64,000 bases of DNA, from positions 10,410,183 through 10,474,182 of the forward strand of contig OY987238.1 in the NCBI GenBank assembly GCA_963920705.1. Reading direction: 5' to 3'. Below are positions 371-53,769 of the stretch, piece by piece. How positions within the stretch are numbered: the first letter of the stretch is position 1; every line of letters begins with the position of its first letter. This DNA is from Odiellus spinosus. Its lineage: Eukaryota > Arthropoda > Arachnida > Opiliones > Phalangiidae. The translations under genes and the position numbers were made by a program. Under the pieces are notes generated by a model that saw only the letters and a list, made by a program, of their open reading frames with translations, searched no databases and was not told the origin of the DNA.

Positions 371-661
371 CAAGAAGGATCAGATAAGGAGAGGAAAAGT
401 AGGGCTGCGTTGAGTTAGAGAGAGAAAAGCCAACCTCCCACTCGGGTGGAAAGGGGGATAGAAAATTCTCGAGGTAAACTGTTGTCACGTGGTCACTAGC
501 GTCGTTGGCTACAACGAAGCTGATAAAGGATCCGTTTTACCCACGTGACAACATTTTACCACGAAACATCTCTACTCCCGTTCTCCCAGAGTGGGAGTTT
601 AGGCCGACGCAGTAGGAACTGCGCCGTCCCCACTTTTCCTCTCCTTATCTGATCCTTCTTG
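371..661. mobile_element. CAAG-ended MITE, copy 1 (7-bp TSD)
   Basis: A 291-bp non-autonomous element. Its ends are inverted repeats of about 30 bp, beginning CAAGAAGGATCAG and closing CTGATCCTTCTTG. Both sides carry the 7-bp duplication GTATTAG (364-370 and 662-668), so the boundaries are exact. The interior includes a CACGTGGTCAC / CCACGTGAC pair and an inverted CCACTCGGGTGG / CCCAGAGTGGG motif. It encodes no protein and would have been moved by a transposase supplied elsewhere. A second copy lies at 39513-39793. Confidence 0.9.
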
Positions 662-668
662 GTATTAG

Positions 669-1269
669 CTTGCGGGTTGAGAAATGAACAGCGAAGGCCC
701 AAGTCTTGTTATTTTGTCGTACTTAGTTATTGTCAGGGGAATTTCTTGTCATACATTTGCTATATCAGGTAGACTTATTTTGAAATTTACACATTATACA
801 GTGTTATTAGAGATGCGGAGAAAATGGATAAGAAATTCATTTGAATTAAGTATGAATTAAGTTATGAAATTTATCTATCAAAATTGAAACAGCAATAGTT
901 ATTTTAAAACAAAAATTAAACCCATTTCAAAAAACAAGTTGATAGCCCTTTGAGATCTGAATTTCAGCTTTGCTAAATATCACCAACTCTATTATCTAAA
1001 ATTTTGTGAATCCTAATTGTTTCTCATTGTTTAAATTCCTCGAATTTGATGGCTTTATTTCCATACTTTATAGCATATAGGCAACATATTACTATTTATT
1101 ATCTTACAATTTCTAAACGTTTGTTATATTGCGTATTAAGCGATGAAAATTGATCTAGTTCAATATACAATTTGTCTTCATCATGCCTTATAATATTTAA
1201 TTGCAGATCTAAGGGTAAATTATTAATCAAAAACGATTTAACTCCAAAAAACGATTATTCAAGAACACT
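669..1269. other. A+T-rich spacer, nothing recognised
   Basis: A+T-rich sequence without a convincing open frame, inverted repeat or tandem repeat. Confidence 0.5.
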
Positions 1270-1542
1270 TGTTTTAAATTTTAGCCCCATTCAATTTCTA
1301 AAGTTTAGTAAAAATTCTATAAATGTTTGACGCCCAAGATGCTGGACATCGAACATCAACCTATTATTTTAATTAAATGTTAGGACATTACAGGACTATT
1401 AAAGGCTGAAATAATATGATTGGTCCGAATTTATATTTAATTTACTGAAATTTTAACAAACTTTAGAAATTAATTTAAACACCAAAAACGTATCTAAAAT
1501 TCTGAAATAAATTCAAAACGTGTTCCATTTTTAGCTCTCCCT
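1270..1542 (-). mobile_element. TTAA-A MITE, left end degraded
   Basis: The right terminus is clear: TGTTCCATTTTTAGCTCTCCCT, read as TGTTCCATTTTTAGC then TCTCCCT, followed by TTAA (1543-1546). Inside are CACCAAAAACG, TTTAGAAATTAATTTAAAC and GGCTGAAATAATATGATTGG, all shared with the fuller copy at 51629-51945. The left arm is recognisable from AATTTCTAAAGTTTAG at about 1297, but its terminus is eroded. No coding potential. Confidence 0.7.
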
Positions 1543-1546
1543 TTAA

Positions 1547-3548
1547 ATTTAAAGCTAGATCGTAAATTTGAATTATAGCATAAGCATCTCGTGGGAAATT
1601 CATTTTAAAATAGTTATTAAAATATAAAATTTATTTCTTGCAACCACAGCAGTGGCATATCTTATTCTTGTGTAGAAACTAGAAAGGCATATTCGTTATT
1701 TCTATTTGTACTTTATAGTATTAGTTATGGCCTTTTTGCAAATTAACATCAATTGAAGGGGTGATAGATAGATTTGCGCTGAAGATTGAGGATAGTCATT
1801 ACTGGACTGGCACCAGGGGGATTCCTAGCTTTCGCCAATGAAATGTTATTGATTTTGAAAAGGGTGCGCGGTGGGCAGACAAACCTATAGATGGATGCCA
1901 TCCGTATCTTTAGCTTTATATATACTCATCCAATGAGATATTTCAGTTACTAATCAGGATGTTTGCGCCAATCTTCCTCGTTCTCGTTTACTTTATACAT
2001 ACCCCATCTATATTCGAAAATGATTTAGAGTTTTCATCGAATACCAACGCCGAAAGCATCCTTCTATTTCTGACAAATTAGGACAGGCGATAAAATGGTG
2101 AGATTAGTTTTGAAACGAGATGAAAACGCCACGTGATGTTTTGACTTTGTACAGCAATCATAGCGTTAAAGCACGCGGGAAGGAGTTGAAACTCTCTCCC
2201 TCAAAAATCACCCGATATTAATTGCGCTTTTCTATACCCTTTATTGGCTTTCTCGGTCAAAGGGAAGCCGCAAGATTGACGCGAGACACGGAAAACCCAC
2301 AAATTTATTGGTGAAGTAGGTTATTGCAAACGTCTATCACTTTATTGCTTAAAAGTAAACAACGCCCCATAGCTTAATACTATTAGCAAAACGTACTAGC
2401 CCAACACTTAAAACTAGCCAAAAAGTCATCACCCCTGTCTGGCCCGAGTGATTTGGACTCTTCCTCGATATTTTGAGTCGGGAGAGAGGGACGGAATTTA
2501 GGCGGGCCGCGCTTGGCTATGATGTCTCCCCCCCCCCCCCCCCCTCAACTCCGGAATTTCTCCAAAGAGTGGCATTTCAGATTTCACTATTTACACCGAC
2601 TGTGGCCGCTAGAGTGTTTCGAATCACAATCTTACGGTACCTTTAACCGGACCTTTGCTGATAGTATTAAGCTACGAGGCTATGTTTACTTTTATAGAAT
2701 AAAGTGATGGGCTTTTGGTTATAGGGAGAAGTTAGGTAATTAAAAAAAAAATTGGGTTACAAGGAAATAATGATAAAAATAATACTAATATTTATTTTGC
2801 AACCGAAAAGGCGAAGTTTAATTGTTATCATCGGAACAAAATATAAATTACTTATTCCATATCTTTTAATTTAGTTTGAAAATTGGGCTAATTAATTCCA
2901 TACGTTAGGATATTTTGTTTAAAACAATTAGTATCTACGTACAAATTATATTAATTGTATTAACGAATGCAAGAAAAATAGATAAATGCTATTTAATAAA
3001 ACAAAACACAAATTACTTATTCCAGAACCTTTTATCTAATTTGAAAATTGGGCTAATTACTTCCATAAGTTAATTTATTTTGATTAAATCAATTATCATT
3101 ATTCACGCACAGATTATTTGCGTATTATTTGACCTTCCCTTTAATAATTAGGTATCGCAATTAATATAGTTGTAAATCGCGCATCGCTGATAGGGTCGAT
3201 CAAAATTTTAACGGTATATTTTATGAACTTGTTTAAACGACTTCCGGTTTTACTAGCTAGCTGTTGGTTCAATATTTGAGATAATATTTTACCAAATATA
3301 TAGAAGGTATAACTTATCATCAGATATATGTTGATTAATTTACCTTATCCCGTTTTAACTAAGATTAAATTGGTTTAAATCGTATAAAAATAAAGATTTA
3401 ATAAGATTAAATTAGTTAAATCATAATTTAAATATGAAATATCATTGAAAGCCAAGAAATAGGGCCCAAAAAAATATACGACGAAGTGTAGATGAAAATG
3501 TTCATCACTTTGTTAAAGAGAGACCATATTATTTGATGTTTACAATAT
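1547..3548. other. A+T-rich spacer with a 17-C homopolymer
   Basis: No gene is recognised. The stretch is A+T-rich except for a G+C-richer patch at about 2440-2620 holding an uninterrupted run of 17 cytosines (2528-2544). Around 2820-3110 the phrases TTAATTAGTTTGAAAATTGGGCTAATT-like and TTCCATA..TTAATTTATTTTG-like recur once, about 180 bp apart, so a short diverged direct duplication is present. Confidence 0.5.
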
Positions 3549-3600
3549 CATAGCGCCTGTAAAAGTGTTCCAACTGTTTCGCTTCGCTGTTGAGGATGAA
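3549..3600. repeat. CATAGCGCCTGTAAAAGTG dispersed repeat
   Basis: The sequence ATAGCGCCTGTAAAAGTGTT followed by CCAACTGTTTCGC recurs inverted at about 22600-22640, and in part at about 12700-12735. All three are short and diverged, so this is an old interspersed repeat of unknown origin. Confidence 0.45.
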
Positions 3601-3664
3601 GCCGACATTTAGGAAATTTTGCTATATTTTTTTAAACCCGAATGAGTCGATCCATTGGTGTGTT

Positions 3665-4500: not shown

Positions 4501-4507
4501 ATATTCT

Positions 4508-4580: not shown

Positions 4581-4988
4581 CTTGAATATTAGTATTTAAT
4601 TCTTTAATGAATGGCGTGATTTCTAAAAGCCGTTAAATCAATTTTTCGGATCAAATTTTTCTCTTATACAACCGAAAATATATTTTTAATTCGAACTCGT
4701 TTAAGGCGTAGCCACATTTAAATCTTAATTAGTGGATAATTTAGATGACCTAATTGCATCATTTGCGGAAAAGTTGTGGTAAATCGTTTCTCTTTGGAGT
4801 TTCGCCTAGCTTGCGACAATGCTATGTTAACGTGAAGTAGATGATGAAGTTTATTGTTAATTAACTATAATTAATTTTAAAGGGGTTGATTAGTAATAAT
4901 TTGCTTAATTATTATATTATATTACTTTTTATTATTATATTACTTTTAAACGAAATAGCAATCTGTTTAATTGAAAAATCGAATAATT

Positions 4989-5828
4989 TAATAGAATCAT
5001 CTATCCATTTAGTAGAATACTCGATCCCTTTTAATAGAATACTCCATCCCTTTTAATAGAATACTCGATCCCTTTTAATAGAATACTCGATCCCTTTTAA
5101 TATAATACTCGATCCCTTTTAATAGAATACTCGATCCCTTTTAATATAATACTCGATCCCTTTTAATAGAATACTCGATCCCTTTTAATAGAATACTCGA
5201 TCCCTTTTAATAGAATACTCGATCCCTTTTAATAGAATACTCGATCCCTTTTAATAGAATACTCGATCCCTTTTAATAGAATACTCGATCCCTTTTAATA
5301 GAATACTCGATCCCTTTTAATAGAATACTCGATCCCTTTTAATAGAATACTCGATCCCTTTTAATAGAATACTCGATCCCTTTTAATAGAATACTCGATC
5401 CTTTTTAATAGAATACTCGATCCTTTTTAATAGAATACTCGATCCTTTTTAATAGAATACTCGATCCTTTTTAATAGAATACTCGATCCTTTTTAATAGA
5501 ATACTCGATCCTTTTTAATAGAATACTCGATCCTTTTTAATAGAATACTCGATCCTTTTTAATAGAATACTCGATCCTTTTTAATAGAATACTCGATCCT
5601 TTTTAATAGAATACTCGATCCTTTTTAATAGAATACTCGATCCTTTTTAATAGAATACTCGATCCTTTTTAATAGAATACTCGATCCTTTTTAATAGAAT
5701 ACTCGATCCTTTTTAATAGAATACTCGATCCTTTTTAATAGAATACTCGATCCTTTTTAATAGAATACTCGATCCTTTTTAATAGAATACTCGATCCTTT
5801 TTAATAGAATACTTGATCCTTTTTAATA
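4989..5828. repeat. 22-bp minisatellite, about 38 units
   Basis: A tandem array of a 22-bp unit, AATAGAATACTCGATCCCTTTT, nearly identical throughout. Up to about 5395 most units end CCCTTTT; from there to the end they end CCTTTTT, so the array falls into two homogenised blocks. The left edge is degenerate (ATCATCTATCC, GTAGAATACTCG), and two TATAATACTCG variants lie 44 bp apart near 5100 and 5145. There is no open frame of interest and no sign of CRISPR spacers. Confidence 0.97.
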
Positions 5829-7020
5829 TTATTATAAAAAATAATCTACTTAAACGTTTAGTTTTCGAAAAAAAAATAGAAACAGAATTTTTTACTGTTA
5901 ATAAAATGGAACTTGCACTTCGCTAAAAATTCACATTACTATTGCCTCGCCAATAAGAGCGTGTAATAAGGATTAAGTGAACGCTAATCCGTGGCTAACA
6001 AAGAAACTACTCGGAGTTCGAAGTAGAAAAACCGAAATCCCTGGGGAGAGACCCCCGAATCACCGCCAGAAAATGTAAAAGGATGCATCCTTGGCTTAAA
6101 GATTTCCCCCTTCCTAAACTCAGAGGGTTATCAGGCAGTGATTTTTTTTTTTTTTATTCAATCCTAAGTATATACTTTTTATACCGGTACTCTCTTGTAT
6201 TCGTTTCAAGAGCTTATGGTTCTAGCATGATAGAAAGATCCTTAAAAAACTACGTAAGAATTAAGCCAGAAAAACAAGTAAAAGTATTTGTGTATTTTGT
6301 TTTTAGATTATTTGAAAATATCTGAATAATTTCATGAAATTAGTATGAGGTTTAACATATATTAATATATAGCTAGTTAAAGCGATGCAGTCAATATTTA
6401 TTTCGAAGATTTAAAGATTATATTTCAGTTTTTTTATGATTTTAAAAAAATTATTCGAAATTTTACACATCTGGGTTAACCCCTTTTTCCAAACTAAAGT
6501 ACCAATATTTTTCTTCAGAACTCAAATACCATATATTAATTCCAACAATAGTAATTTTATTTTTTTGCCCTGTTGGAATTAAATTCCTATGAATTAAATC
6601 GACCGTGGAGGTATAATTTAGTGTCCCACACCATTTTAAGACAGTATAAGTATAGACATTTGAATTTTGGTTGTAATAAAAACCTGTTTTATGTAAATTT
6701 GGCTGAAATTTCACGATAATTCGGAATTTAGTTCGACTATTCCTTCCATTCTTTTTCTTTTCTCTCCAATAAATTCCACCTCCTTTCTGAATCATTTAAT
6801 TGTTTTTTCTTCTTCTTCTCGTTCTTTACTTACACTTCCTTTTCTCTCAAACATTTCTCTTTATTTCTGTTCATTTATCTTCTTTGATTTAAGATACGCA
6901 ATTAAAGCTAAATGGGTCCAATTTAGTTAAATTCCAGCCTATACCAAAGTTTTCTTCATCCCTAATGTCACTTAAAATGGTCTAACCAGCCCCAAATATA
7001 TCGCATATTCTAAATGTAAC
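5829..7020. other. A+T-rich spacer with a perfect 12-bp inverted repeat
   Basis: Nothing recognised as a gene. A 110-codon open frame on the minus strand (6463-6795) is rich in Asn, Lys, Ile and Tyr, as chance frames in A+T-rich DNA are. Within it lies the inverted pair TTAATTCCAACA / TGTTGGAATTAA (about 6537-6583) with a short T-rich loop. Confidence 0.5.
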
Positions 7021-7336
7021 CAGAAGCCGATGAAACCTTCCTTTGAAGTCTACTACTCTAATGTTCGATATAGCGCTCGTCTCTGTATGGGTGAAATTCA
7101 CAATTTTCATACTCCCCTGTCTAAGGAAAATTCTAAATTCTCTCTCTCCACAAACGACGACGTTTTTTTGACGAACTCCAAGGCTGCTAGAGATATTCGC
7201 TCGACGAACTCCCGCTCCGAAAATATCTACCGTTAGGAGGCGTACGAAATCGCGCTTTTTGAAACTAACCCATACAGAGAGGGGTAGACAAGACCCGGGA
7301 GTAATAGACTTCAAAGGAGGGTTTCATCGGCTTCTG
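7021..7336. mobile_element. CAGAAGCC-ended MITE, copy 1 (7-bp TSD)
   Basis: A 316-bp element with inverted ends CAGAAGCCGATGAAAC / CATCGGCTTCTG, extended inward by CTTTGAAGTCTACTACTC and its complement. It is flanked by the 7-bp duplication ATGTAAC (7014-7020 and 7337-7343). A second inner inverted pair is CTCTGTATGGGTGAA / ACCCATACAGAG. Open frames on both strands follow from the symmetry and are not genes. Sister copies are at 24655 and 37577. Confidence 0.92.
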
Positions 7337-7343
7337 ATGTAAC

Positions 7344-8579
7344 CTAATTCGATCGTTCTAAAAGACCCACATTAAAGGGAATGTATAATTAGATGTGAAG
7401 ATATTATAAATTTATTCCTTTGAAATAGACCATATACAAAATTCGATTTAAAATAGACCCTATATAAAGTTCGATTTGATATAAACCCCCGACAAAATGA
7501 TTCTGAGTTTTCGATTGCACCCTTGTTTTATCAAATTTCCTGCTCTCTGTTATGTTATGAGCTTGAAATACCTTTTTATTTAGCTGTTTATCATCATCAA
7601 ATATAAATTTATTCAACCACGTTCCAAGTAAATTGAATAAATTAAAAAGTCCCGTTTTCCTACAATTCTCTATACTTGTATTCAATATATATCGATTTAT
7701 CCCGTATCGGCTGATAGTGAAACCAAAGGTATAGGATGTTTAAACGCTAATAATTCCCACTGTGACAAGTGATATATTATCCCTAACTAAACGCGTATCC
7801 TTATCGGGTTATTCGGCTATTCGAGAGACTACGCCTATAAACGGATAGAGATATTAATTACTTGACCCGAATTGTTGTCACCTACCGCTCTGAATTAAGC
7901 CTAAACTTACGTAACTTGATATCATAAGTTAGGCAATTATACTAATATAAGATGTAATCCTGTATTAGAACTCTGACACATTTAAATATGTTTTGCGTCG
8001 ATTCATACATTAGGAGTGTACTCTGTTAAATTTATAGCCCTCGGAGTTCAAATAACATTTAAAGGGAAACTTGAAGCTAAAGCTCCAGCCTCCAAATTTC
8101 CATTTAAATTATTTTATTCAATAACCCTTGCTTTCACACACAGAAAAACCCTGGTGTTAAAATTTCCTTATGTGTGCTTCTTCTAACGTAAATCTTATCG
8201 TAAAAAAATTTCATTCCTTATTTTCAAATAACGTTTTGATTCAAAAGCTAGGAACCATAAAAAAAGCTGCAATAATAATACGTAAGAGAATTTGATATGA
8301 AATTGTAATCTAATTTTCAGAAATATGTTTTTAAGTTTAAACGTAAGTCAAATATTCCCACGGTAACCTTTTCCTACGTAAGCTTTTACATATAAGTTTA
8401 ATTTTAATACAATCTTCAGAGTTTCTCTTAGACCAATTATTATTCCCTCACAAGAGTCCATACATGTCCAAATAAAAGTCGAGAGATAGAGGAACCAAGT
8501 TTTCACTCACTAAAATTCGAATATTTATGCATTCATAATTTGGGGGTAAGGATAAATCATAGACTAAGAAAGAGTTTTA
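7344..8579. other. A+T-rich spacer with a TTAA-A end fragment
   Basis: No gene recognised. At 8063-8098 the left end of a TTAA-A element survives: TTAA, then AGGGAAACTTGAAGCTAAAG. The 93-codon minus frame at 7404-7685 has a chance-like composition. Confidence 0.5.
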
Positions 8580-8712
8580 CCCTGGACACGCGACGTGCTC
8601 CCTACGTCACGATTCTGTGTGTGCCCCATCTCTACTGCTAATGCGCCTGCGCAGCAACGATAATTGGCTTGATGACCGCTAGAGGCGCCAGCGAACTGCT
8701 GACCAAGAACCC
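8580..8712. promoter_or_regulatory. CpG-rich patch with NRF1-, CRE- and CTCF-like words
   Basis: A locally G+C- and CpG-rich stretch in A+T-rich surroundings. It holds a CRE-like TACGTCAC (about 8601-8608), a near-palindromic TGCGCCTGCGCA (8642-8653) one base from the NRF1 consensus, and CCGCTAGAGGCGCC (about 8679-8692), which resembles the CTCF core. The motif matches are visible in the sequence. Their use as a promoter or insulator is inference, and no gene starting here is recognised. Confidence 0.25.
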
Positions 8713-9001
8713 TAACTATTTAAAATAAATTTATTATATGAATCAAAAACCTCTCTTCTTGGTCTATATTTTCTTTAGCTAAATCGCAATTTCCGAAAAC
8801 ATTTTTGATTTAGATTTTTCCCATTTTTACTCGGCGTCCGAAAACGGATATAAAATGGGTTGTAAAGTACGGGGAAAATGTATTAAATTAGACTTTAGCA
8901 TATACACATATATATACCCATATTTTTATGCGTGTTTTTTTGAAATTGAACTTTTTCTAAAGAGAAAAACCGACGTGAAAGAAATACTTTATTTACGAGA
9001 G

Positions 9002-10985: not shown

Positions 10986-12962
10986 TTTCTCGATTTTTCA
11001 ACGTTTAATACAGCACCCTTCTCAGTCGATAAAAATTTTGACTCTCGCTTTTTCTGATTAAAAAAGACGAGAACATTTGTTCTGACCCCTGGGGCTTTGT
11101 CTTCGGGTCAATGAGTGACCCTACTGTCAACTGATTTCTAATAATAGAATCTTTTTATCATTTTATTTTTTATTTTTGTCCTCTACTGTCTTTATGGATG
11201 AACACTTCCTCTAGAAAAAAATGGCCCAAAAGTATATTTTTCATCAAATCTCATGCACTCCTTTTTAGGTACTTCTCTCGCTACCAGAGAAGTGTAGGTT
11301 TTTCCATTTTTTTTTATTTGGCTTTAAATTTGGGTCATGAACTCAATTACATTTCATCTAACTTCCACTTTTCTGATTCCAAATATAAGCTTATTTTATT
11401 GGCTAGCATTATAGGTTAAATTCAATATTATATTATCATTTATAATTATAAAATTTTGGACCAGTGAGAGAAGCGAGTACACCTGCTCTTTTTACGCCGA
11501 AGCGAGATTTTTATTTTTATTTATTTCAGCCTAAAAATTTAGTGTAGGTTTTATAAACAAAGTATTTTAAAAAATAACTAAAAAAAAAATTCCCTTTAAA
11601 TATTATAAAATATGAAATATTTTTGAAAACATCACTCTTTTCAAAGATATCTATGCTGTATAAACTTTTCCAAATTGTCAATTACAGTTACGACATTAAC
11701 TAATTTAGATAAATTACAATTTAATTTTAATTCTACTAAATTAATGACAATCACTATATATCGTATGAATAAAATTTTCAGGATTTAATTTTTTTAATAT
11801 CGTCAGCCCATTAAGCTACAATATTAAGGCATCGAATATACCAGCTTTTCGTCATTACTGAAACTCGCTTTATCTTGAATTATCTATGTGAACAATTTTC
11901 CAATTTTAATTGACTGTTCTACTCGTATGAATTCTATCTTGATTTGACATTACATGCAAACTTTGTTATCTCCATTATTACAACTTCGCTAGCGCTGTCA
12001 AAAGCAAATGAATTGACGATATAGAACCGCGGGTCCAACCTATCAGTATTGTAGTTGACTTCAAAAACGTCCAGGGTAATTATCAACCCCTATTATAAAG
12101 CAGTCAAGGCCCCCCTGGAAGCTTCCGAACCCCTTAATGGAGTCTAAAAATGACTTTGAGGCTTTTACAATCGAATTTGGGGGGTTCCTATACCTAACCC
12201 AACCCTCTCACTAGTTTTCTCTCTCTAGCTAGCTCGCTTACTTTTGATCCTCTGAAATTCTCGCGCGTCGGCTAAATGATTTAACTTACGGTATACGACT
12301 CTTTCTCCAAAAACTGCTTTTTAGGGGAAAAGTTTAAGCTGTTGCGGTTTTATGGAAAGGTGAAATTGTAAATTAAAGTGTTACTGACTTGATTTTATAG
12401 GCCTATGTCTGTTATAGTTAATTCCATCTGGAGCTGGCACCAGATGGAAATTTTCGCCAATTTTCTTTATGAAAACGTATCATGGGATAATTGCAAATAT
12501 AGCTTTATGCTTGCTGCCAACTTCAAGTGAAATTCACGAATAGTGAATTTCCTTAAGGGTACCACTTTGTAGTCCACATGCAAATTTAAAATTATTTACA
12601 ATTGTTTAGCATATTTAGCCAATGCTTCATCTTGAACTCCAGTGTGCGACAGTAAAACATTTGTACAGGGGAAAAATCCTAATGCTAATTACCATAGCCC
12701 CTGTAAATGTGTTTTTCCCGTTGTGTTTGTTTTAAAATTTATTTCTTCTTACGAATAATTCCATTTATTTGATAAAGTAATAAGAAGTTTGGAATTTTAA
12801 ACAAATTAGTTTAATTGAACAAGCTTAGGTTTGCAGCGAATTTCCTTTGCCAAAATGTATTTGGACAAAGTGTGCAGATTTGTGTTGTCTTGATAATTTG
12901 ATAATTTTCTTAAGGTTTGATTACATAAAGAATCAATCAAAACCAATTTGTAATATTCTTAA
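10986..12962. other. A+T-rich spacer with small palindromes
   Basis: No gene recognised. Small palindromes are present, for example GGGTCAATGAGTGACCC at about 11116-11132 and CCATCTGG...CCAGATGG at 12424-12447. A diverged copy of the CATAGCCCCTGTAAATGTG repeat lies at about 12692-12735, facing an inverted ACATTTGTACAGGGG at about 12658. Confidence 0.5.
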
Positions 12963-13312
12963 AGGGAGAATGCAATCTAACTGTTAGTGATTTTTTTATC
13001 GATTCCTTATTGTTTAAATAGGCTTAATCCACTAGTAAAAAAATTACAAACAAATATTAAACTAGAAATAAATTTAAAACTTAACCGTAAAATAGGCTTA
13101 GCGGGATTCATGGAGATCCGGAATTGCGTCGCGCATAAGGTCTAGCGACCGATCGAACGCGATTGTAACTCTCGTCGAGATCTCGCGTGAACGACGGGCC
13201 TTTGCTTATTGGTCGCTAGACCTTACACGGAGTCAATTCAGGATCTCAATGAATCCCGCTAAGCCTATTGGTGGATTAGGCCTATTTAAACGATAAGGAA
13301 TCGTTAAAAAAT
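12963..13312. mobile_element. TTAA-B foldback element, right end truncated
   Basis: The left terminus is intact: TTAA (12959-12962), then AGGGAGAATGCAATC, TTTTTATCGATTCCTTATTG and TAGGCTTAGCGGGATTCATG. The right arm mirrors it (TGAATCCCGCTAAGCCTATT, GGATTAGGCCTATTTAAACG), but the terminal CATTCTCCCT is gone. The core is unusually CpG-rich and has its own inverted pair, AAGGTCTAGCGACC / GGTCGCTAGACCTT. Confidence 0.85.
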
Positions 13313-14264: not shown

Positions 14265-14303
<39 letters not shown>

Positions 14304-14637
14304 ACAAAACAAATATTAAACTAGAAATAAATTTAAAACTTACCATCAAAATAGGCTTAGCTGGATTCATGGAGATATCCTGAAGGACTAACGACCAATG
14401 ACATTGATCTGTTTCTTATATCGGGAATGCAGGATCTCCATGATCAATGTCATTGGTAGCTAGTCCTTTTAGCTAGTTCAGGATATCTCCATGAATCCAG
14501 CTAAACCAATTTTGATGGCAAGTTTTAAATTTATTTCTAGTTTAATATTTGTTAGTTATTTTTTTTCTGTTGGATTAGGACTATTTAAACGATAAGAAAT
14601 CGATAAAAATCACTTGTTGTTAAGTTGCATTCTCCCT
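14221..14637. mobile_element. TTAA-B foldback element, complete copy
   Basis: A 417-bp element with both ends and TTAA on each side (14217-14220 and 14638-14641), consistent with TTAA-specific insertion as in piggyBac-type transposons. The ends read AGGAAGAATGCAACC and GTTGCATTCTCCCT. The arms run inward through AAATAGGCTTAGCTGGATTC, and the core has an inverted pair around CAATGACATTG / CAATGTCATTGG. The left arm contains a run of about 30 adenines (14271-14300) where other copies have only 7-9. It encodes no protein. Confidence 0.93.
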
Positions 14638-18940: not shown

Positions 18941-19361
18941 AAAGTTCTAAACATATTGCAAACTAGTCGCAAAACAGGAAAAAAAAAAAAAAAAAACTGC
19001 AGTGTGAACATAAGCGGGAGTTTTTTTTTAGTTTTTGATAAATGATTCTTTCAATTTTAAACAAATTTTGGAAACATTTTTTTTGAAAGGTTTTCGTAAT
19101 TGTTTCGTTGTAGGAAAAAAATCGAGAAAGATATTCAAGATTATATTTCAGAAAATCGTAAAACTGTCCCAATAAACATTTAAAAAAATATTCCAACTAA
19201 AGTTAAATTATCTTTTCAATTCAACTATCAATAAACTTAATTTATTTTATAAATTATGATTTAAAAATGGCTGCAGTCAGCTTATGCGTCGATATTCTAC
19301 GCAATGAAGTAAAAATTTATATACTATAAAAAGTTTTAATAAATCAATTACGAATTATTTA

Positions 19362-19906
19362 GAGCTCGGAATTGGATATCCCTTATCTTCTGTTATTCGT
19401 ATATTTTCAGATATTTTATTTTCGGATAAATTGTTTCTACCTAAAAAATGAAATTTATATATTCGTATAATTGTTAAATGTATCAGTTTACCCGAAGATA
19501 AGCATTTGGCGCTTTATCTACGAACAAATTACTCGTATTCAAACGTATAACGATGGATAAGAAAATTCGCATTTCCTGAATTAGTCTAAAATAAGAAAAA
19601 TATTTCAAATTGACATTTAATTTGAAGAATATAAATAAAACAACGGAACTATGATTTTAAATCATCTTTTTATTCATTATTTTTCACGAAAATAAATTTT
19701 GAATTTTTTTATCCGAACGTATAACGCGGATAATATTCTAAAATAAGGCCATTTTTAGATAAAAACGAATATGGATTACGTTTTTTACTTTATCTTCGAA
19801 TAAGTTAACTCGAATAAAAATAGTATATTTTTAATCAAACAGATAATATAAATCAGAATTTAGTAGATTTTTTCTAATTAATAAAAAATATTCCAATTCC
19901 GAGCTG
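19362..19906. mobile_element. TA-1 MITE (GAGCTCGGAATT ends), copy 1
   Basis: A 545-bp non-autonomous element flanked by TA on both sides. The ends read GAGCTCGGAATTGGATAT and CAATTCCGAGCTG. The arms are long imperfect inverted repeats: ATTTTCGGATAAATTG, GATAAGCATTTGGCGCTTTA and AAAATGGCC/GGCCATTTTT motifs recur in mirrored order. A TA target fits Tc1/mariner-type mobilisation (inference). It has no transposase frame. Confidence 0.88.
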
Positions 19907-24647: not shown

Positions 24648-24654
24648 GTAATAC

Positions 24655-24967
24655 CAGAAGCCGATGAAACCCTCCTTTGAAGTCTACTACTCTAATGTTC
24701 CATATGGCGCTCCTCTCTGTATGGGTAAAATTCACAATTTTACGAGATTGGAGGGGTCCTACTTCATACCCCCTGTCTACGGAAAACTGGAAATTCTCTC
24801 TCTCCACAAACGAAGACGTTTTTTTGACGAACTCCAAGGTTGCTAGAGATATTCGCTCGACGAACTCCCGCTTCGAAAATATCTACCGTTTGAAACTAAT
24901 CCATACAGAGAGGGGTAGACAAGACCCGGGAGTAATAGACTTCAAAGGAGGGTTTCATCGGTTTCTG
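24655..24967. mobile_element. CAGAAGCC-ended MITE, copy 2 (7-bp TSD)
   Basis: A 313-bp copy with the 7-bp duplication GTAATAC on both sides (24648-24654 and 24968-24974). It lacks about 20 bp present in copy 3 around the GGAGGCGTACG segment. Terminal and inner inverted repeats are as in copy 1. Overlapping open frames on both strands (longest 131 codons, running out of the element) are by-products of the inverted structure. Confidence 0.93.
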
Positions 24968-24974
24968 GTAATAC

Positions 24975-33688: not shown

Positions 33689-33695
33689 ATATAAC

Positions 33696-34113
33696 CAGAG
33701 GTATATAATAACCCCCTTCGGGGGGAAGTATGAAAGGTAGGCAAAATCGACGAACAACAAGTGCCCGGCGTAAATCGCGGCGGATCGACACACCGCTTTA
33801 CTCCCAAAAAATAGTTACACCATTTTGAACCTCACTAAATATTACCTACGCACACTTCCGGAACTGGCGAGCTGAAGTCAACCTTCGACTCCATTTTAAC
33901 AGACAGCCTGACCCCTGAGACAGGAAGTTCTAAACACAAATCGAGCCGTCTTGATTATACAAAGACCATTTACTAGAGTAGCGACATTGAGAAGTCCAGC
34001 GCGAGCTAGTGGCCTAGATAGTCAGCAGCGGGCTCTTGTTGTTCGTAATTTTTAGCATTGGTAGTATAGGGGCTTTCATACTTCCCTCCGAAGGGGGTTA
34101 TTATATACCTCTG
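33696..34113. mobile_element. CAGAGG-ended MITE, copy 1 (7-bp TSD)
   Basis: A 418-bp element with inverted ends of about 40 bp: CAGAGGTATATAATAAC, then CCCCTTCGGGGGGAAGTATG, mirrored at the right. Flanked by ATATAAC (33689-33695 and 34114-34120). CCCCCTTCGGGGG can itself form a hairpin within each end. The terminal CAGAGG fits the loose hAT consensus, but the 7-bp duplication is one short of the usual hAT 8 bp. Nearly identical to the copy at 34784, implying recent activity. Confidence 0.95.
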
Positions 34114-34120
34114 ATATAAC

Positions 34121-34776: not shown

Positions 34777-34783
34777 ATACAAC

Positions 34784-35201
34784 CAGAGGTATATAATAAC
34801 CCCCTTCGGGGGGAAGTATGAAAGGTAGGCGAAATCGACGAACAACAAGTGCCCGGCGTAAATCGCGGCGGATCGACACACCGCTTTACTCCCAAAAAAT
34901 AGTTACTCCATTTTGAACCTCACTAAATTTTCCCTACGCACACTTCCGGAACTCGCGTGCTGAAGTCAACCTTCGACTCCATTTTAACAGACAGCCTGAC
35001 TCCTGAGACAGGAAGTTCTAAACACAAATCGAGCCGTCTTGTTTATACAAAGACCATTTACTAGAGTAGCGACATTGAGAAGTCCAGCGCGAGCTAGTTG
35101 CCTAGATAGTCAGCAGCGGGCTCTTGTTGTTCGTGATTTTTAGCATTGGTAGTATAGGGGCTTTCATACTTCCCCCCGAAGGGGGTTATTATATACCTCT
35201 G
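34784..35201. mobile_element. CAGAGG-ended MITE, copy 2 (7-bp TSD)
   Basis: Same length (418 bp) and orientation as copy 1, differing at only a few positions. Flanked by ATACAAC (34777-34783 and 35202-35208), which differs from copy 1's duplication at one base. The separate duplications show two independent insertions 670 bp apart rather than a segmental duplication. Confidence 0.95.
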
Positions 35202-35480
35202 ATACAACTTATATCATATATGGGATAACAATTTCAGTCTATTATTTTCACTTATATTTTAACCATACAAACATTTAATGTTTACACTTTAGATTATATC
35301 AAAAAGTCTTTGCGAACAAAGACCAAGAAGGACGTGTTATGATTTCGGTTGACTGAAGTAACAGAGTTTCTAATTTCAAAACAACTGATTTTATTCACTC
35401 GCAAATATTTTAGAAAAAAAACATAACAGACGATTTTCTCCCATTAAAATTAAATTTGGTTTAATTATTTTTCGAGGAAA

Positions 35481-37569: not shown

Positions 37570-37576
37570 TTATTAT

Positions 37577-37913
37577 CAGAAGCCGATGAAACCCTCCTTT
37601 GAAGTCTACTACTCCAATGTTCCATATAGCGCTCCTCTCTGTATGGGTAAAATTCCCAATTTTACGAGTTAGAAGGGGTCCTACTTCATCCCCCCTGTCT
37701 ACGGAAAATTGGAAATTCTCTCTCTCCACAAACGACGACGTTTTTTGGACGAACTCCAAGGCTGCTAGAGATATTCGCTCGACGAACTCCCGCTCCGAAA
37801 ACATCTACCGTTAGGAGGCGTACGAATCGCGCCTTTTGAGAATAACCCATACAGAGAGGGGTAGACAAGACCCGGGAGTAATAGACTTCAAAGGAGGGTT
37901 TCATCGGCTTCTG
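37577..37913. mobile_element. CAGAAGCC-ended MITE, copy 3 (7-bp TSD)
   Basis: The longest copy (337 bp), flanked by TTATTAT (37570-37576 and 37914-37920). It keeps both the CTCTGTATGGGTAAA / AACCCATACAGAG inner pair and the GGAGGCGTACG segment. Several 60-90 codon frames on both strands result from symmetry and resemble those in the sister copies; none begins a recognisable protein. Confidence 0.94.
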
Positions 37914-38004
37914 TTATTATGTAAGCAAACTTTTCTGGTTTAATTAGAATATCACTCCGGATATTTGTCTTACCCCACACATATATGATCAAGTTTTTCG
38001 TTAA

Positions 38005-39010: not shown

Positions 39011-39412
39011 TCGACTACCCTTCTCTACCTTAAAAATCATAATTACAATATTTTAAATGGGAGGATGTGTAATGCGGAGCAATATAGCTTCATTTTTTTC
39101 TAAACAGGCAAAATTTTTCGACTTTTAGCTATCTTTTGTACCTAAATTGGAATATAAAATATTTTTCCATCAACAAGGGAATAGTGCAATATTACTCTTT
39201 TAACGCCAGTCGCCGTCGAGTTTGGTGATAACATCAAAATTTTCTACCGCAAAACTTTTATTTACGGCCGTTGTTTAAAAGGGGGCGTGGAAAGTTTTAA
39301 AATTTAAATATAATTTATTGTTATTGGACATTTTTAAAATTACGAATATATTTAAAAATATTTAATTTTTGCTTCTCACAATTAAAGCTGGAAGTAACTT
39401 ATTAAGATTCGA
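39011..39412. other. A+T-rich spacer, nothing recognised
   Basis: No gene or repeat seen. Confidence 0.5.
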
Positions 39413-39416
39413 TTAA

Positions 39417-40052
39417 AGGGAGAATGCAACTCAACAACAAGTGATTTTTTTATCGATTCTTTATCGTTTAAATAGGCCTAATCCAACAGTAAAAAAAAAT
39501 ACAAACAAATATCAAGGAGGATCAGAGAAGGAGAGGAAATGTGGGGCTGCGTTGAGTTAGAGAGAGAAGAGCCAACCTCCCACTCGGGTGGAAAGGGGGG
39601 ATAGGAAATTCTCGAGGTAAACTGTTGTCACGTGGTCGCTAGCTAGCGCGTCTCATAAAGGATTCGTTTTACCCACGCAACAACATTTTACCACGAAACG
39701 TCTCTACCCCCGTTCTCCCAGAGTGGGAGTTTAGGCCGACGCAGTAGGAACCGCGCTGTCCACACATTTCCTCTCCTTCTCTGATCCTCCTTGCAAATAT
39801 TAAACTAAATTTAAAACTTACCATCAAAATAGGCTTAGCTGGATTCAAGGAGATATCCTGAACCATAAGAGCCATCGATCAATGTCATTGGTCGCTTGTT
39901 CTTATAAGGGGAGTTTAGGTGATCTCCATGAATTCAGCTAAGCCTATTTTCTAGTTTAATATTCGTTTGTAATTTATTTACTGTTGGACTAGGCCTATTT
40001 AAACGATAATGAATCGATAAAAAAATGACTTTTTTTAGGTTTCATTCTCCCT
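39417..40052. mobile_element. TTAA-B foldback element with a nested insertion
   Basis: Both termini are intact (AGGGAGAATGCAACTC and TTTCATTCTCCCT), flanked by TTAA (39413-39416 and 40053-40056). The left arm is split by the CAAG-ended element at 39513-39793. Without it the element would be about 348 bp. Arms carry AAATAGGCTTAGCTGGATTC and TTCAGCTAAGCCTATTTTC; the core has CAATGTCATTGGTCGC. The nesting shows TTAA-B inserted first. Confidence 0.93.
39513..39793. mobile_element. CAAG-ended MITE, copy 2, nested (7-bp TSD)
   Basis: A 281-bp copy of the family at 371-661, with ends CAAGGAGGATCAG and CTGATCCTCCTTG. The 7-bp duplication CAAATAT (39506-39512 and 39794-39800) consists of host TTAA-B sequence, which proves the boundaries. 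Relative to copy 1 it has lost about 10 bp in the middle (CGTCGTTGGC region). Confidence 0.95.
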
Positions 40053-40056
40053 TTAA

Positions 40057-45120: not shown

Positions 45121-45463
45121 AATCGATTCCTTTTCCAACGGTAAAAAGAAATTAAAAACAAATATTAAACTAGAAATAAATTTAAGACTTACCCGGAAAA
45201 TAGGCTTAGCTGGATTCATGGAGATCACATGAACTCCCATATAACGACCAATGGGGAATGCAGGATATCCATGATCAATGCCTTTAGTTGTTAGTCCTTA
45301 TACGGGGTGATCAGAATATCACCATGAACCCGCTCTAAGCCTATTTTGATGGTATGTTTTGAATATATTTCTAGTCTAATATTTGTTTTTATATTTTATC
45401 ACTAGTTGATTAGGCCTACTTAATCGATAAAAAAATCATTTGCTGTTAGGTTGCATTCTCCCT
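45121..45463. mobile_element. TTAA-B foldback element, left end deleted
   Basis: The right end is intact: GGTTGCATTCTCCCT followed by TTAA (45464-45467). The left arm starts inside the family sequence at ATCGATTCCTT and lacks about 20 bp before CCAACGGT. The arms (AAATAGGCTTAGCTGGATTC; CTCTAAGCCTATTTTGATGG) and core (TGATCAATGCC, GTTAGTCCTTATACGGGG) match copies at 14221 and 56091. Confidence 0.85.
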
Positions 45464-45467
45464 TTAA

Positions 45468-48802: not shown

Positions 48803-49425
48803 GGATCACAGTATATATAATCAGTTCTATCTCGAGTTGGCAGAACCTGCTAAGCTAGGATACACCTTATTTGAATTTGTTGACTAAGAGATGAAGTGAG
48901 ATCCTACAGTATTGCGCATGGTACCAGTTCAAGGTGGGATTAACTATATGCCTTTATCGAGAGTTCGTCTCTCTAGATTAAATTGTGCAAAGACAATTTA
49001 TTGTTATACAATTTGGATCCTTTTGTTTTTTTGTCTTTCTTTTGTTTTTTTGTTTTTTTTCTTCTGCGAACAAGAGATTTTTTTTTATATTTGAGGGCTG
49101 TTTTTCACCAAGATAGTTTTATTTTTAAAAAATAAAAAAATAAAGAAACGGTCTATTCGATGTTTTTAAGGGCGTTCGACCAATTCTTTTAAAGTCTGTC
49201 TGCGGGCCTTTTCAGGCCCGAAATGGTGATAAGGGTGATTTAATTTCACGGGTGCTTAAACTGAAGATGCGCTAGTATCCGATATCAAAATCCTCTTCGC
49301 CCTATTATTGTTCCAAGTGCGGGTTACCCGATTATCCAAGGAATTTGAGCTTAATTATGGCACTAATTGAGAGATGTACATGTGCATATGTTCAAGAAAA
49401 TTTGGAAAAGCTAAGGCATATCGAT
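48803..49425. other. Spacer, nothing recognised
   Basis: Mixed T-rich stretches (about 49018-49090) and a G+C-richer patch near 49200. No gene or repeat accepted. Confidence 0.5.
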
Positions 49426-49427
49426 TA

Positions 49428-49944
49428 GACCTCGGAATTGGATATCCATTATCTTCTGATGTTTTATTTTCGGGTAAATTGTTTCTAACTAAAAAATGAA
49501 ATTTGTTTATTCGTATAGTTGTTAAATGTATAAGATTTACCCAACAATAAGCATTTGGCGCTTTATTTACGAAGAAATTACTCGTATTCAAACGTATAAT
49601 GATGGATAAGAATATTCACATTTCCAGAATTAGTCTAAAATATAAGAAAAATATTTCTAATTGACTTTTAATTTGAAGAATATAAATAATACAATGATTT
49701 TAAATCATCTTTTTATTCATTATTTTTCAGGGAAATAAATTTTGAATTTTTTATATCCTAACGTATAACGCGGATAATATTCAAAGATAAGGCCATTTTT
49801 GGATAAAAACGGATATGGATTATGTTTTTTACTTTATCTTCGAATAAGTTAACTCGAATGAAAAATAGTCTAATTTTAATCAAATATATATAAGAATTTA
49901 GTAGATTTTATCCAATTAATAAGTATTATACGAATTCCGAACTC
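49428..49944. mobile_element. TA-1 MITE, copy 3
   Basis: A 517-bp element between TA dinucleotides (49426-49427 and 49945-49946). Ends GACCTCGGAATTGGATAT and ACGAATTCCGAACTC. Same orientation as 19362. Diverged at several sites and without coding capacity. Confidence 0.87.
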
Positions 49945-49946
49945 TA

Positions 49947-50208
49947 ATTGAGAATGTGGCCCGAAAAACAAAGCGGCGTTCACACTGAGACTTAAAAACC
50001 TTTTCGGAATGGTTAAATTTAAAATTTCTCGATCAAATATTGAGATTACTTTTTCAACGAGCAAAAACTTGCGCCTCTTAGTAATTTCTTGGTGCCACAC
50101 TTTATCAATAATCTAGATTTATTTATAGAATTTCAATTTGTAACCGACACTTTAAAAGATTCCAGAACCAAATTTAGATTTCTTATTTTTTTTTCCCTTC
50201 GTATATCC

Positions 50209-50239
<31 letters not shown>

Positions 50240-50605
50240 ATCTTTTTATTACGTTAAGTACTAGTTTAATTGTAGTCTATAAAATGCCGACATATATCCT
50301 TTATTCTTCTTCTTCTTCTAAATAGGTTGGGAAAAGCTCTTGGGTAATATTCATTCCACTCGATAAAAAAAAGTTTTCTATTATGTCCCCTAGTAAAGAA
50401 AAATTTAATGATGGTTTAGATTCATTAAACAATATTAATTACGGATATTAAATTTCAAGGCGAAAATGTGCATTAATTTGAAATATGTTAGCATTTATTT
50501 AAATACGGGTTAAGATTATATAGTAATAAGGCATTTTTTAACAATGTATGAAATTTAATCGAGAAATTATGAAGTTGAAAAATATTTTATTAACTAGATT
50601 TTGAT
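49947..50605. other. Short spacer between two TA-1 copies
   Basis: Contains the TA-2-like remnant at about 49970-50025 and a run of about 27 adenines at 50210-50236. No gene. Confidence 0.5.
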
Positions 50606-50607
50606 TA

Positions 50608-51072
50608 GAGCTCGGAATTCGTATAATTTTTATTAATTGGATAAAATGTACTAAATTCTGATGTATATTATCTGTTTGATGAAAAATAGACTATTATTAA
50701 AAACCATAATCCATATCCGTTTTTATCCAAAAATGGCCTTATCTTAGAACATTATCCGGATAAAAAATTAAAAATTTATTTTCGTGAAAAATAATGAATA
50801 AAAAGATGATTTTAAAATCATAGTTTCGGTGTTTTATTTATATTCTTCAGATTAAAAGTCAATTTGAAATACTTTTCTTATATTTAGACTGATTCAGGGA
50901 ATAATTTATTCGTAGATAAAGTGCCAAACGCTTATCTTCCGAGGGTAAACCTTTTACATTTAACAATTATATGCAAATTTAATTTTTTAGTTACAAAACA
51001 ATTTATCCGAAAATAAAATATCTGAAATTATACGAATAACAGAAGATAATGGATCGATCCGATTCTGAGGTC
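50608..51072. mobile_element. TA-1 MITE, copy 4
   Basis: A 465-bp element between TA dinucleotides (50606-50607 and 51073-51074), orientation as in 31017 and opposite to the neighbour at 49428. Ends GAGCTCGGAATTCGTATA and CCGATTCTGAGGTC. It has internal deletions relative to the 510-545 bp copies. Confidence 0.87.
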
Positions 51073-51254
51073 TACTTTTCTCTAATAAGTTATGAACTTT
51101 TGCTGTAAATTAACACAAAACATTTGATAAGTTTTGACTCCATCTTCATTAAAAGTTTTAAATTTTTTAGAGATGCAATTAATTTGATACTTTTAGCCAT
51201 TTCAATTAAGCCAGAATTCGAAAAGGGAGTTCATTATCTTCTAAATTAAATCAG

Positions 51255-51945: not shown

Positions 51946-53176
51946 TTACTTTTATTTCAAATGTAACCTGTTTGTCGTTGTTATTTAATCCCAATTTACG
52001 AATTTCAATCGGATTATAATACAGCCAATGGATACCATTACTTTCGGTTAGAATTTAATTTAAAAATGATTGAATTTTTCTCCTTCAAACCTTTAATACC
52101 TTTATAATTCATTTTTTTTTACATTAATCATATTCTCCTACATTCGTTAAAACCTAAGGTTCATTCGCACTATAAAATTTTATTTGTTAATTAAATTTTA
52201 ATTACTATTTAGTTAGTTTTAATTAAATGATCCCAATCAATAAATCAAAGATCGAAATGGATTAGGAAAGGTTGGGGTAGTATTTGAACATAGTTCATTT
52301 CTTTCCATCATTTGAAACTCAATCCCTTTACCCCATCATTTCGATCGCTTTCAAGAAATTTATTGACCTCTACTGTGTACATCTCGCGCTCTGCTGACCT
52401 GTTTGTCAAAGGTCAAATACAGGAAGCGAAATATACAAAACAGCGAATAATTAAAAATAACATGGTTTAATTTTTAAATTAAAACTTTTTTGAAATAGAA
52501 TTGTTGACTGCTTACATTAATAACAAAAGTTTGTCAATGATCTATGGGTTCAAAAGTTCAATCATGTGATGTTGTGAACAGGGCTTTAGTTTCAAAAGTA
52601 TAGCTGACTCCTTGCAAGCAAGGGTTTAAAACGTAATAGGTACCTCACTACTAACTTTAACCGCTCTGAAGTGTGACTTTGATATAGTTAATACTTGGGC
52701 TAGCTGTAGCTTTTCGTTTCTCAACTTTTTCACTCGCTTCGTTGGTTTTTTTTTTGGGTCCAAATCATCTTGAATTTGCACCAAATACGAACCTACTCTT
52801 TAATTTTTATGAATGAAATTTTTAAAGATAAAAAGGTCTAATATCATTTTCTACCTTTTGATATCTCAAACTGATTCTCTTAATAGTAATGTTCAGGAAC
52901 AGTTTTTATAACTACTTTTATTTCTTATGAGTTGTTACATTGTGTATCAATACACCTTAACTTTTCATAAATTACAACACTACTCGCGTAAAAACGTACC
53001 GCTAAAAAGCGATCCCGAAACTTGAAGTTACTTTGACACGTAAGGATTAGAAAAAGGGTATAGAGTTGGAAAAAAAATCACTCCTGAGACGTTTTTAAGA
53101 TCTTTAATTTACTTTCTAGCTCGGAAAAAAAAAAAAAAATTTAAGTGCGGGAAGCTTTCGAAGTAGGTTTTTTTAC

Positions 53177-53211
<35 letters not shown>

Positions 53212-53357
53212 CGCTTAAAATAGCTCTAATGTAATTATAAAAAAAAAAACCTAAGCTACTTTTTCATTTTATTTACAAGTAAAATATGCTACATATTGGC
53301 AGAATTACGAAAATTTAAACACATTTTTTTCGAATGCTTATTTTTATTTGTATCATA
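51946..53357. other. A+T-rich spacer with D65 copy and a long T run
   Basis: A forward D65 copy spans about 52911-52990 (ACTACTTTTATTTCTTATGA, ACATTGTGTATCAATACACC, ACACTACTCGCGTA). A homopolymer of about 33 T lies at 53179-53211. No gene recognised. Confidence 0.5.
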
Positions 53358-53364
53358 CTATTAA

Positions 53365-53681
53365 CAGAAATAGATGAACCGAAATTATCAACGAGCTATT
53401 CCTCTAACGCCACAGGCAAGTTCTCCGTTTCCCCTCTCTTAGACGACAGTTGTAGCCCCCTCCCCCGCGGAATTTCGCCTAGCCGAGAAACGTTGAATGC
53501 GCCACCTGGCTTGGTTTGCAGCCGTCGCTACGTGGGGCGATCAGTTTCCCAAGATCCTCCTCGGTATTTCATTGAGCCCGAGGAAGCCCATTCCCCCAGT
53601 GCTTACCCTCCCCATTCACTCCAAATAAAATGCATTTCCCAATCTAAGCTCTCGTTGATAATTTCGGTTCATCTATTTCTG
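53365..53681. mobile_element. CAGAAATAG-ended MITE with a G+C-rich core (7-bp TSD)
   Basis: A 317-bp element bounded by inverted ends of about 31 bp starting CAGAAATAGATGAACCG and by the 7-bp duplication CTATTAA (53358-53364 and 53682-53688). The core is markedly G+C-rich (CCCCCTCCCCCGCGG near 53457). A 122-codon frame that spans the element starts and stops in flanking sequence or ends, has no ATG-anchored domain, and is best read as an accident of the G+C-rich insert. It occurs once in this window. Confidence 0.93.
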
Positions 53682-53769
53682 CTATTAAAACGCCATAATT
53701 AAAATTTTAAATCTCTGCGTTAAGCCGTTCCTAAGAAACTTCAAAATTAAATGACGTAGTTTATACTGA

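What the first reader, a model, noticed from the sequence alone, without database searches (positions are those of the whole stretch)
371..53688. Eight MITE insertions in four families, all with 7-bp target duplications sharing NTANWAN
Four families with different ends (CAAG, CAGAAGCC, CAGAGG, CAGAAATAG) all show perfect 7-bp duplications: GTATTAG, CAAATAT, ATGTAAC, GTAATAC, TTATTAT, ATATAAC, ATACAAC, CTATTAA. Seven of eight fit N-T-[AG]-N-[AT]-A-N, a near-palindrome centred on the duplication. Length and preference are shared although the interiors are unrelated, which suggests one transposase group mobilised all four. Seven bases is uncommon among cut-and-paste superfamilies (hAT and P usually give 8, PIF 3, Tc1 2).
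Basis: partly seen in the sequence, partly recalled or inferred. Interest (0 to 1): 0.78.

Follow-up and report, generated by a model that had tools for sequence, protein, structure and literature searches.

The report
Young MITEs, probably P-type, 7-bp duplications
Eight short 'hitch-hiker' transposons in this stretch of a eukaryotic genome all leave the same 7-base scar at similar targets; the scar matches that of one branch of the P-element transposons, full-length members of which sit in the same genome, so the pattern is real and young but of a known kind.

Summary
All eight elements have matching inverted ends and perfect 7-bp duplications (8 of 8). A scan assuming no end sequence gives no other credible class among duplications of 5 bp or more. 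Paralogues with a single CAAATAT prove insertion for the element at 39513. Top-ranked copies elsewhere in the 443-Mb genome have exact 7-bp duplications too: F1 (CAAG) 20 of 20, F3 (CAGAGG) 22 of 29, F4 (CAGAAATAG) 37 of 39 pairs. All four families prefer NTNNNAN; F2-F4 add A3/T5, and F3's consensus is GTANTAC. F4's best 40 copies print as 100% identical.

Seven bases is not unknown: Galileo, a P-superfamily transposon, duplicates 7 bp, consensus GTANTAC (PMC4168063). This genome holds 5,670-bp elements with an 856-aa THAP/P transposase and exact 7-bp duplications (4 of 4, plus 2 of 2 deleted derivatives); a relic lies in the window at 8558. I read the MITEs as P-superfamily derivatives. Their own autonomous partners were not found, and another P family here duplicates 8 bp (2 of 2), so a 7-bp hAT-like source is not excluded. 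New member of a known kind.

The parts
364..668 (.). F1 MITE, 291 bp (371-661), CAAGAAGGATCAGATAAGG ends, TSD GTATTAG
   Evidence: 1,854 first-look candidates in the genome, the 40 scored are 98-100% identical over full length, this copy included
7014..7343 (.). F2 MITE, 316 bp (7021-7336), CAGAAGCCGATGAAACC ends, TSD ATGTAAC
24648..24974 (.). F2 MITE, 313 bp (24655-24967), one mismatch between the ends, TSD GTAATAC
33689..34120 (.). F3 MITE, 418 bp (33696-34113), CAGAGGTATATAATAACC ends (TIR about 41 bp), TSD ATATAAC
   Evidence: 203 first-look candidates, the 40 scored are 97-100% identical
34777..35208 (.). F3 MITE, 418 bp (34784-35201), TSD ATACAAC; flanks differ from those of the other F3 copy
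37570..37920 (.). F2 MITE, 337 bp (37577-37913), TSD TTATTAT
39506..39800 (.). F1 MITE, 281 bp (39513-39793), TSD CAAATAT, inserted into an older AT-rich inverted-repeat element
   Evidence: empty-site paralogues with a single CAAATAT
53358..53688 (.). F4 MITE, 317 bp (53365-53681), CAGAAATAGATGAACCG ends (31-bp perfect TIR), TSD CTATTAA
   Evidence: 365 first-look candidates, the 40 scored print as 100% identical
39403..40056 (.). older AT-rich inverted-repeat element that received the F1 insertion; paralogues near 12951, 14293, 45134, 54758, 56087 supply the empty site
8558..8725 (.). decayed relic of the 7-bp-duplicating P family: one end (8558-8609, 92% over 52 bp to L115) and an inner stretch (8634-8725, 86% over 93 bp to L096, inverted)

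Best explanation
The eight elements are non-autonomous, transposase-less inverted-repeat elements (MITEs) that were cut out and pasted in trans by transposases of the P superfamily, of the branch that staggers its cut by 7 bp (as Galileo does). Such a transposase binds ends beginning CA, cuts the target 7 bp apart at a palindromic NTNNNAN site (at its best GTANTAC), and gap repair leaves the 7-bp duplication. Shown: ends, duplication length, an empty site, shared core preference, copy number and youth (F1, F3, F4), and P transposons in the same genome with the same duplication length and a similar preference. Inferred: that P-type enzymes moved F1-F4, and that several related enzymes rather than one were used.
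For: Exact 7-bp duplications: window 8 of 8; F1 20 of 20 fetched, places 2-21 of the 40 listed; F3 22 of 29 elements in the 30 best loci, 4 of the other 7 differing at one base; F4 37 of 39 pairs, the other 2 differing at one base. Shared preference: T2/A6 0.67-1.00 in F1-F4 against 0.33-0.34 for random window 7-mers; 0 of 2,000 random sets reach the information content in any of the four; logo correlations among F1-F4 0.66-0.93; F3 consensus GTANTAC, which is the published Galileo consensus (PMC4168063). Genome: 386 first-look candidates for the P-transposase domain PF21787, 150 scored, all 150 over the cut-off. One of these families is 5,670 bp, terminal repeats identical over the 32-35 bp read, exact 7-bp and not 8-bp duplications at four sites (GTCTGTC, CTTAGAC, ATACATC, ATATTAT) and in 1,219- and 654-bp deleted derivatives (GTAATAG, CTTCATC). 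Its 856-aa frame has THAP, RNase-H and GTP-binding-insertion domains and matches the solved P transposase, E 5e-19. Its six duplications give G .50 T .75 A .42 N T .42 A .75 C .50 (2 of 2,000 random sets as strong). A relic of it is in the window.
Against: No full-length element with F1-F4 ends was found; the one longer F4-ended pair (909 bp, L095) has no recognisable coding in the frames tested. The ends of the 7-bp P family (CATAGACTAAG) do not match F1-F4 under the Repbase rule (positions 1-11, at most one mismatch; compared by eye). A second P family here makes 8 bp (GTTATAAC, AATGGAAC; 2 of 2), so P alone does not predict 7. The preference does not separate P from hAT, whose recalled 8-bp consensus nTnnnnAn is similar.
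Confidence: 0.63

Rival explanations
1. The MITEs are moved by a hAT lineage that staggers by 7 bp (hAT7-like).
For: hAT transposases are abundant too (220 first-look candidates, 150 scored); hAT7 families with 7-bp duplications exist in rust fungi (PMC12730594, section 3.1.2 read); CAGAGG is a start recalled from hAT elements; the recalled hAT preference nTnnnnAn resembles the motif.
Against: Eight hAT 3' flanks of 600 bp (of 150 scored matches; two of the eight are one family) showed no end like F1-F4; where I could see an end by eye or by comparing two copies it was CAGTGGCGCC.., CAGTAGCGCC.. or CAGTGCCGG... The only F1 match there was a nested F1 MITE downstream of a 955-aa frame. hAT duplication length in this genome was not measured.
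Confidence: 0.22
2. Another or undescribed superfamily (for example KDZ/Kyakuja, or a new one) moves them.
For: Kyakuja has CA..TG termini and 7-bp duplications (PMC12730594, passages); autonomous partners of F1-F4 remain unseen.
Against: The Kyakuja families described there have no TIRs, whereas F1-F4 have about 30-41 bp. The KDZ search gave 0 candidates, but its control rang nowhere, so it shows nothing.
Confidence: 0.13
3. Chance or alignment artefact in AT-rich DNA.
For: AT-rich palindromic repeats in the window do give spurious inverted repeats with short flanking matches.
Against: Many near-identical copies with exact duplications at different sites, empty sites, and 0 hits for the reversed control of the F4 pattern against 245 + 258.
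Confidence: 0.01

Closest known systems
Galileo (P superfamily, Drosophila)
   Same: 7-bp target duplications, palindromic GTANTAC preference, terminal repeats more numerous than transposase segments (PMC2775673, PMC4168063, PMC10990002; passages seen)
   Different: Galileo TIRs are long (up to 1.2 kb) and internally repetitive; F1-F4 have about 30-41 bp and total 281-418 bp. The host is not identified here. No tree against Galileo was made.
Canonical P element
   Same: THAP + RNase-H + GTP-binding-insertion transposase in the 7-bp family of this genome; CA...TG termini and about 31-bp TIR (P values recalled)
   Different: Canonical P makes 8 bp (PMC4168063, passage); one P family here does so as well
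hAT7 (rust fungi)
   Same: 7-bp duplications (PMC12730594)
   Different: Known there from coding elements in fungi; their ends were not compared here

Membership tests
MITE (non-autonomous TIR element) | short, TIR-bounded, target duplication | tested here: met
   281-418 bp, 8 of 8
MITE (non-autonomous TIR element) | high copy number, homogeneous length and sequence | tested here: met
   F1, F3, F4 (only the best 40 of each scored). F2: the DNA search found no candidate, its words being masked as common; a pattern for a variant of its ends, with some F4-like variants, has 2,113 matches
MITE (non-autonomous TIR element) | no transposase coding | tested here: met
   no transposase family among the 150 longest of 193 stop-to-stop frames (55 aa or more) of the window
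P superfamily (7-bp branch, Galileo-like) | 7-bp duplication | tested here: met
P superfamily (7-bp branch, Galileo-like) | palindromic GTANTAC target preference | tested here: inconclusive
   F3 consensus GTANTAC; F2 and F4 NTANTAN; F1 only NTNNNAN
P superfamily (7-bp branch, Galileo-like) | P-type transposase between the same ends | tested here: inconclusive
   found for the CATAGACTAAGAAC family; not found for F2-F4 ends in listings capped at about 100 places; F1 not tested in this way
P superfamily (7-bp branch, Galileo-like) | terminal match, positions 1-11, to a classified family with the same duplication length (Repbase rule, PMC4455052, passage) | tested here: not met
   F1-F4 against CATAGACTAAG: more than one mismatch each (by eye). 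F4 against the F2/F4 intermediate: one mismatch
hAT | 8-bp duplication (5-7 in exceptional lineages) | tested here: not met
   7 bp in the copies examined; hAT7 remains possible
hAT | hAT transposase between the same ends | tested here: inconclusive
   8 hAT 3' flanks of 150 scored matches, none ending like F1-F4
KDZ (Kyakuja) | CA..TG ends without TIRs (as described in PMC12730594) | tested here: not met
   F1-F4 have TIRs of about 30-41 bp
KDZ (Kyakuja) | KDZ transposase in the genome | tested here: inconclusive
   0 candidates, control rang nowhere

The most novel reading that the evidence does not exclude
P-type transposases of this genome mobilise elements that are little more than two fused ends: near-perfect palindromes of about 20-46 bp. 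Two 31-bp palindromes made of the terminal repeat of the 5,670-bp P family stand in tandem inside that family, each flanked by a 7-bp repeat (CTTCTTA, TTCTTAC); a 37-bp CAAGGATCC palindrome has TTCCGAC on both sides; 58 places hold CAGAAGCC and its complement within 46 bp (reversed control 1). If some of these moved at that size, the ends must pair without a loop of DNA between them.
Probability: 0.1. Interest if true: 0.65.

Novelty: new member of a known kind. Interest (0 to 1): 0.42.

Why it matters
It also shows that duplication length and target motif can tie together MITE families whose interiors are unrelated, and that 7-bp and 8-bp P families coexist in one genome, so that what sets the stagger can be tested by comparing their transposases.

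Tried and rejected
Chance was rejected. Looking for the host through Pfam on 150 of 193 frames gave three weak hits (best E 0.002), taken as noise; Rfam and tRNA scans gave nothing. An F2 end pattern had no match in viral contigs. The 8-bp P family (CATAGATATATG ends) was rejected as the source. Ends were not found for six other P loci of 5.5 kb. Shuffle tests of end similarity were weak: F2-F3 0.0095, F2-F4 0.0125, F3-8-bp-P 0.015, F4-8-bp-P 0.0425, the other six pairs 0.19 or more (ten pairs, uncorrected). A pattern for F3 ends that differ after position 17 gave 104 ends, one pair among those listed (408-bp spacing class, C4:23563337), and by eye none within 5 kb of a listed P hit. A possible 3.2-kb F4 pair (C1:6697891/6701107) was rejected because its flanks differ. 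The KDZ search is uninformative. The family searches for P and hAT rang in 0 of 14 control genomes.

Rows dropped before counts: F4 pairs use 78 of the 100 listed rows; the 22 others had no listed partner with matching spacing, partly because the pattern excluded G at position -8. F3: two of 30 loci (L063, L065) gave no pair with exact end hexamers; L063 was later seen with GTAAAAT and one end mismatch. The copies examined are the top-ranked ones, not a random sample. F2 duplications beyond the window's three come from a scan that lists only exact flanking repeats of 6-12 bp and skipped L075-L095, so they are no unbiased test. In one search five ends had no listed partner and were not followed.
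Full report
Observation. They make up 2,691 bp, 4.2% of the window, and are richer in G+C (45-53%) than the window (33%). A scan that presupposed no end sequence returned these eight as the only credible class among flanking repeats of 5 bp or more; the other printed rows carry self-complementary flanks, which only lengthen an inverted repeat, or are the same rows one base out of register, apart from one AT-rich 7-bp row at 49705. Rows of 4 bp (48) were counted but not inspected, shorter ones not listed.

Insertion is shown, not only inferred. The F1 element at 39513 lies inside an older AT-rich inverted-repeat element. When its flanks are joined with one CAAATAT, the join aligns through the site with paralogues in the window. 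Of nine alignments shown, seven carry a single CAAATAT, one CGAATAT, and one is altered there; some are the two arms of one palindromic copy, so they are fewer than nine independent sites.

Genome-wide test. The window lies in a genome of 443,074,358 bases in 286 contigs, unnamed here and plainly a eukaryote (two ORFs of 130 aa or more in 64 kb; abundant P and hAT transposases). The 40 copies scored per family are 98-100% identical for F1 (of 1,854 first-look candidates), 97-100% for F3 (of 203), and print as 100% for F4 (of 365), the window's own copies included. F2 gave no candidate, since the search skips words that are very common. Exact 7-bp duplications: F1 20 of 20 fetched; F3 22 of 29 elements in 30 loci, two of them the window's own; of the other seven, four differ at one position, one reads as 6 bp one base out of register, two agree at 5 and 4 of 7 positions; F4 37 of 39 pairs, the two others differing at one position. 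These are top-ranked copies.

Target preference. Taken on both strands, T at position 2 (A at 6) has frequency 0.67 in F1 (n=23), 1.00 in F2 (n=8), 0.84 in F3 (n=22) and 0.78 in F4 (n=38), against 0.33-0.34 in random window 7-mers; no random set of 2,000 reached the information content of any of the four. A at 3 (T at 5) is raised in F2, F3 and F4 (0.56, 0.45, 0.59) but not in F1 (0.37). T at position 1 is rare (0.05-0.12). Logos correlate between families (0.66-0.93; random sets as close 0-4 of 500). F3's consensus is GTANTAC. F1 is the loosest (pyrimidine at 2 in 0.98). So the second would-be refutation, no shared logo, did not come true either, though F1 shares only the core. Caveats: F2 is small and not sampled without bias; the background is the window, not the whole genome.

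Families are partly related at their ends. L044 holds a 338-bp element whose interior looks like F2's (by eye) and whose ends are CAGAAGTAGATGAAACC. A pattern for this form and close variants has 1,087 + 1,026 ends, reversed control 0; 62 of the 66 rows printed with letters are CAGAAGTAGATGAAAC[CT]. It differs from F4's CAGAAATAGAT at one of 11 positions, which under the Repbase rule (PMC4455052, passage seen) puts them in one superfamily. Two more families with 7-bp duplications turned up in loci fetched for other reasons: CAAGAATCCATTC (316 bp, GTGATAT and ACTATAT) and CATGGATTAATC (128 bp, GCTATAT). That scan covered about 275 kb; 19 of its 34 seven-bp rows are F3 copies that were fetched on purpose, so it is no random sample.

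What moves them. Galileo, a P-superfamily element, makes 7-bp duplications: consensus GTAGTAC in D. buzzatii, GTATTAC in D. willistoni, GTANTAC over six genomes, with three 8-bp copies in D. willistoni (PMC2775673, PMC4168063, passages seen). hAT7 and Kyakuja make 7 bp in fungi (PMC12730594, passages and one section read). The genome has 386 first-look candidates for the P domain PF21787 (150 scored, all over cut-off) and 220 for the hAT dimerisation domain (150 scored).

A 7-bp P family is present. Four copies of an 856-aa P transposase locus (L015, L016, L017, L019; 99.9% identical over 3.4 kb; one with an in-frame TGA) lie in 5,670-bp elements whose two ends, CATAGACTAAGAACGGGTTTCACCC.., are identical over the 32-35 bp read. 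All four have perfect 7-bp and not 8-bp duplications at different sites, and so have two internally deleted derivatives of 1,219 and 654 bp. The pattern for this end had 24 places, reversed control 1. The frame carries THAP, RNase-H N-terminal and GTP-binding-insertion domains and matches the solved P transposase 6p5a over residues 386-782, E 5e-19. Its six duplications favour G-T-A-N-T-A-C (2 of 2,000 random sets as strong); its logo is close to F3 and F4 (0 of 500 random sets as close) and less so to F1 and F2 (10 of 500). A decayed piece of the family lies in the window at 8558-8725. A second P family (4.4 kb, CATAGATATATG ends) has 8-bp duplications in 2 of 2 copies; over the part compared the two enzymes are 22% identical. 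Thus 7-bp and 8-bp P families coexist.

What is not shown. No full-length element with F1-F4 ends was found. The longest F4-ended pair with matching flanks is 909 bp (GTAGAAT); it shares 146 and 160 bp with the MITE at its ends (88 and 92% identical) and has an AT-rich middle without a Pfam match in the three frames tested. Pattern listings show about 100 places each, so most of the genome was not inspected for long pairs, and F1 ends were not searched in this way. F1-F4 ends do not meet the Repbase rule against the 7-bp P family. In eight hAT 3' flanks no F1-F4 end was seen except a nested F1 MITE. I put P superfamily at 0.63, hAT at 0.22, other at 0.13. Whether one or several enzymes serve the four families is open; I think several related ones, since F1's ends and looser preference set it apart.

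Tiny palindromes. Inside the 5,670-bp P family, in all four copies, two 31-bp palindromes stand in tandem, each made of 17 bp of the family's terminal repeat and 13-14 bp of its inverse, flanked by CTTCTTA and TTCTTAC. A 37-bp CAAGGATCC palindrome with TTCCGAC on both sides lies in L014, and its counterpart in the related L018. The genome has 58 places with CAGAAGCC and its complement within 46 bp, against 1 for the reversed pattern. Of three distinct sites whose flanks I could read, one has flanks alike at 6 of 7 positions (CTAATAT/CTAATAC) and two have none. Internal deletion after insertion is the likely origin; movement at that size is the bolder reading.

Literature. Nine searches in an open-licence library brought up, in the listings and passages seen, no account of P-type MITEs with 7-bp duplications outside Drosophila. 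Most listed papers were not opened, so this is no proof that none exists.

Noticed in passing
window 8558-8725: Decayed relic of the 5,670-bp P family that makes 7-bp duplications; one end recognisable, the other not found.
   Followed up: yes
L015 3077-3146 (G000:C2:30622304-30622373): Two tandem 31-bp near-perfect palindromes made only of the P family's terminal repeat, each with a 7-bp flanking repeat, inside the P element and shared by all four copies.
   Followed up: partly
G000, 58 places: Short palindromes with CAGAAGCC ends (up to 46 bp), many different centres, some identical on different contigs.
   Followed up: partly
L098 (G000:C17:11526655-11527255): F1 MITE with TSD ACAAAAC (GTTTTGT on the + strand) inserted just downstream of a 955-aa frame with a hAT dimerisation domain.
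   Followed up: no
window 12951-13157, 14293-14641, 39403-40056, 45134-45467, 54758-55207, 56087-56437: Older AT-rich inverted-repeat family, about 64-93% alike over the aligned parts, several copies in the window; its own target duplication was not worked out.
   Followed up: no
window 19358-19908, 31008-31530, 49425-49948, 50599-51074: Four copies of another repeat of about 500-550 bp, 69-86% alike.
   Followed up: no
window 4987-5828 and 25933-26279: Two clean tandem arrays: a 22-bp unit about 38 times and a 20-bp unit about 17 times, both 98% matched.
   Followed up: no
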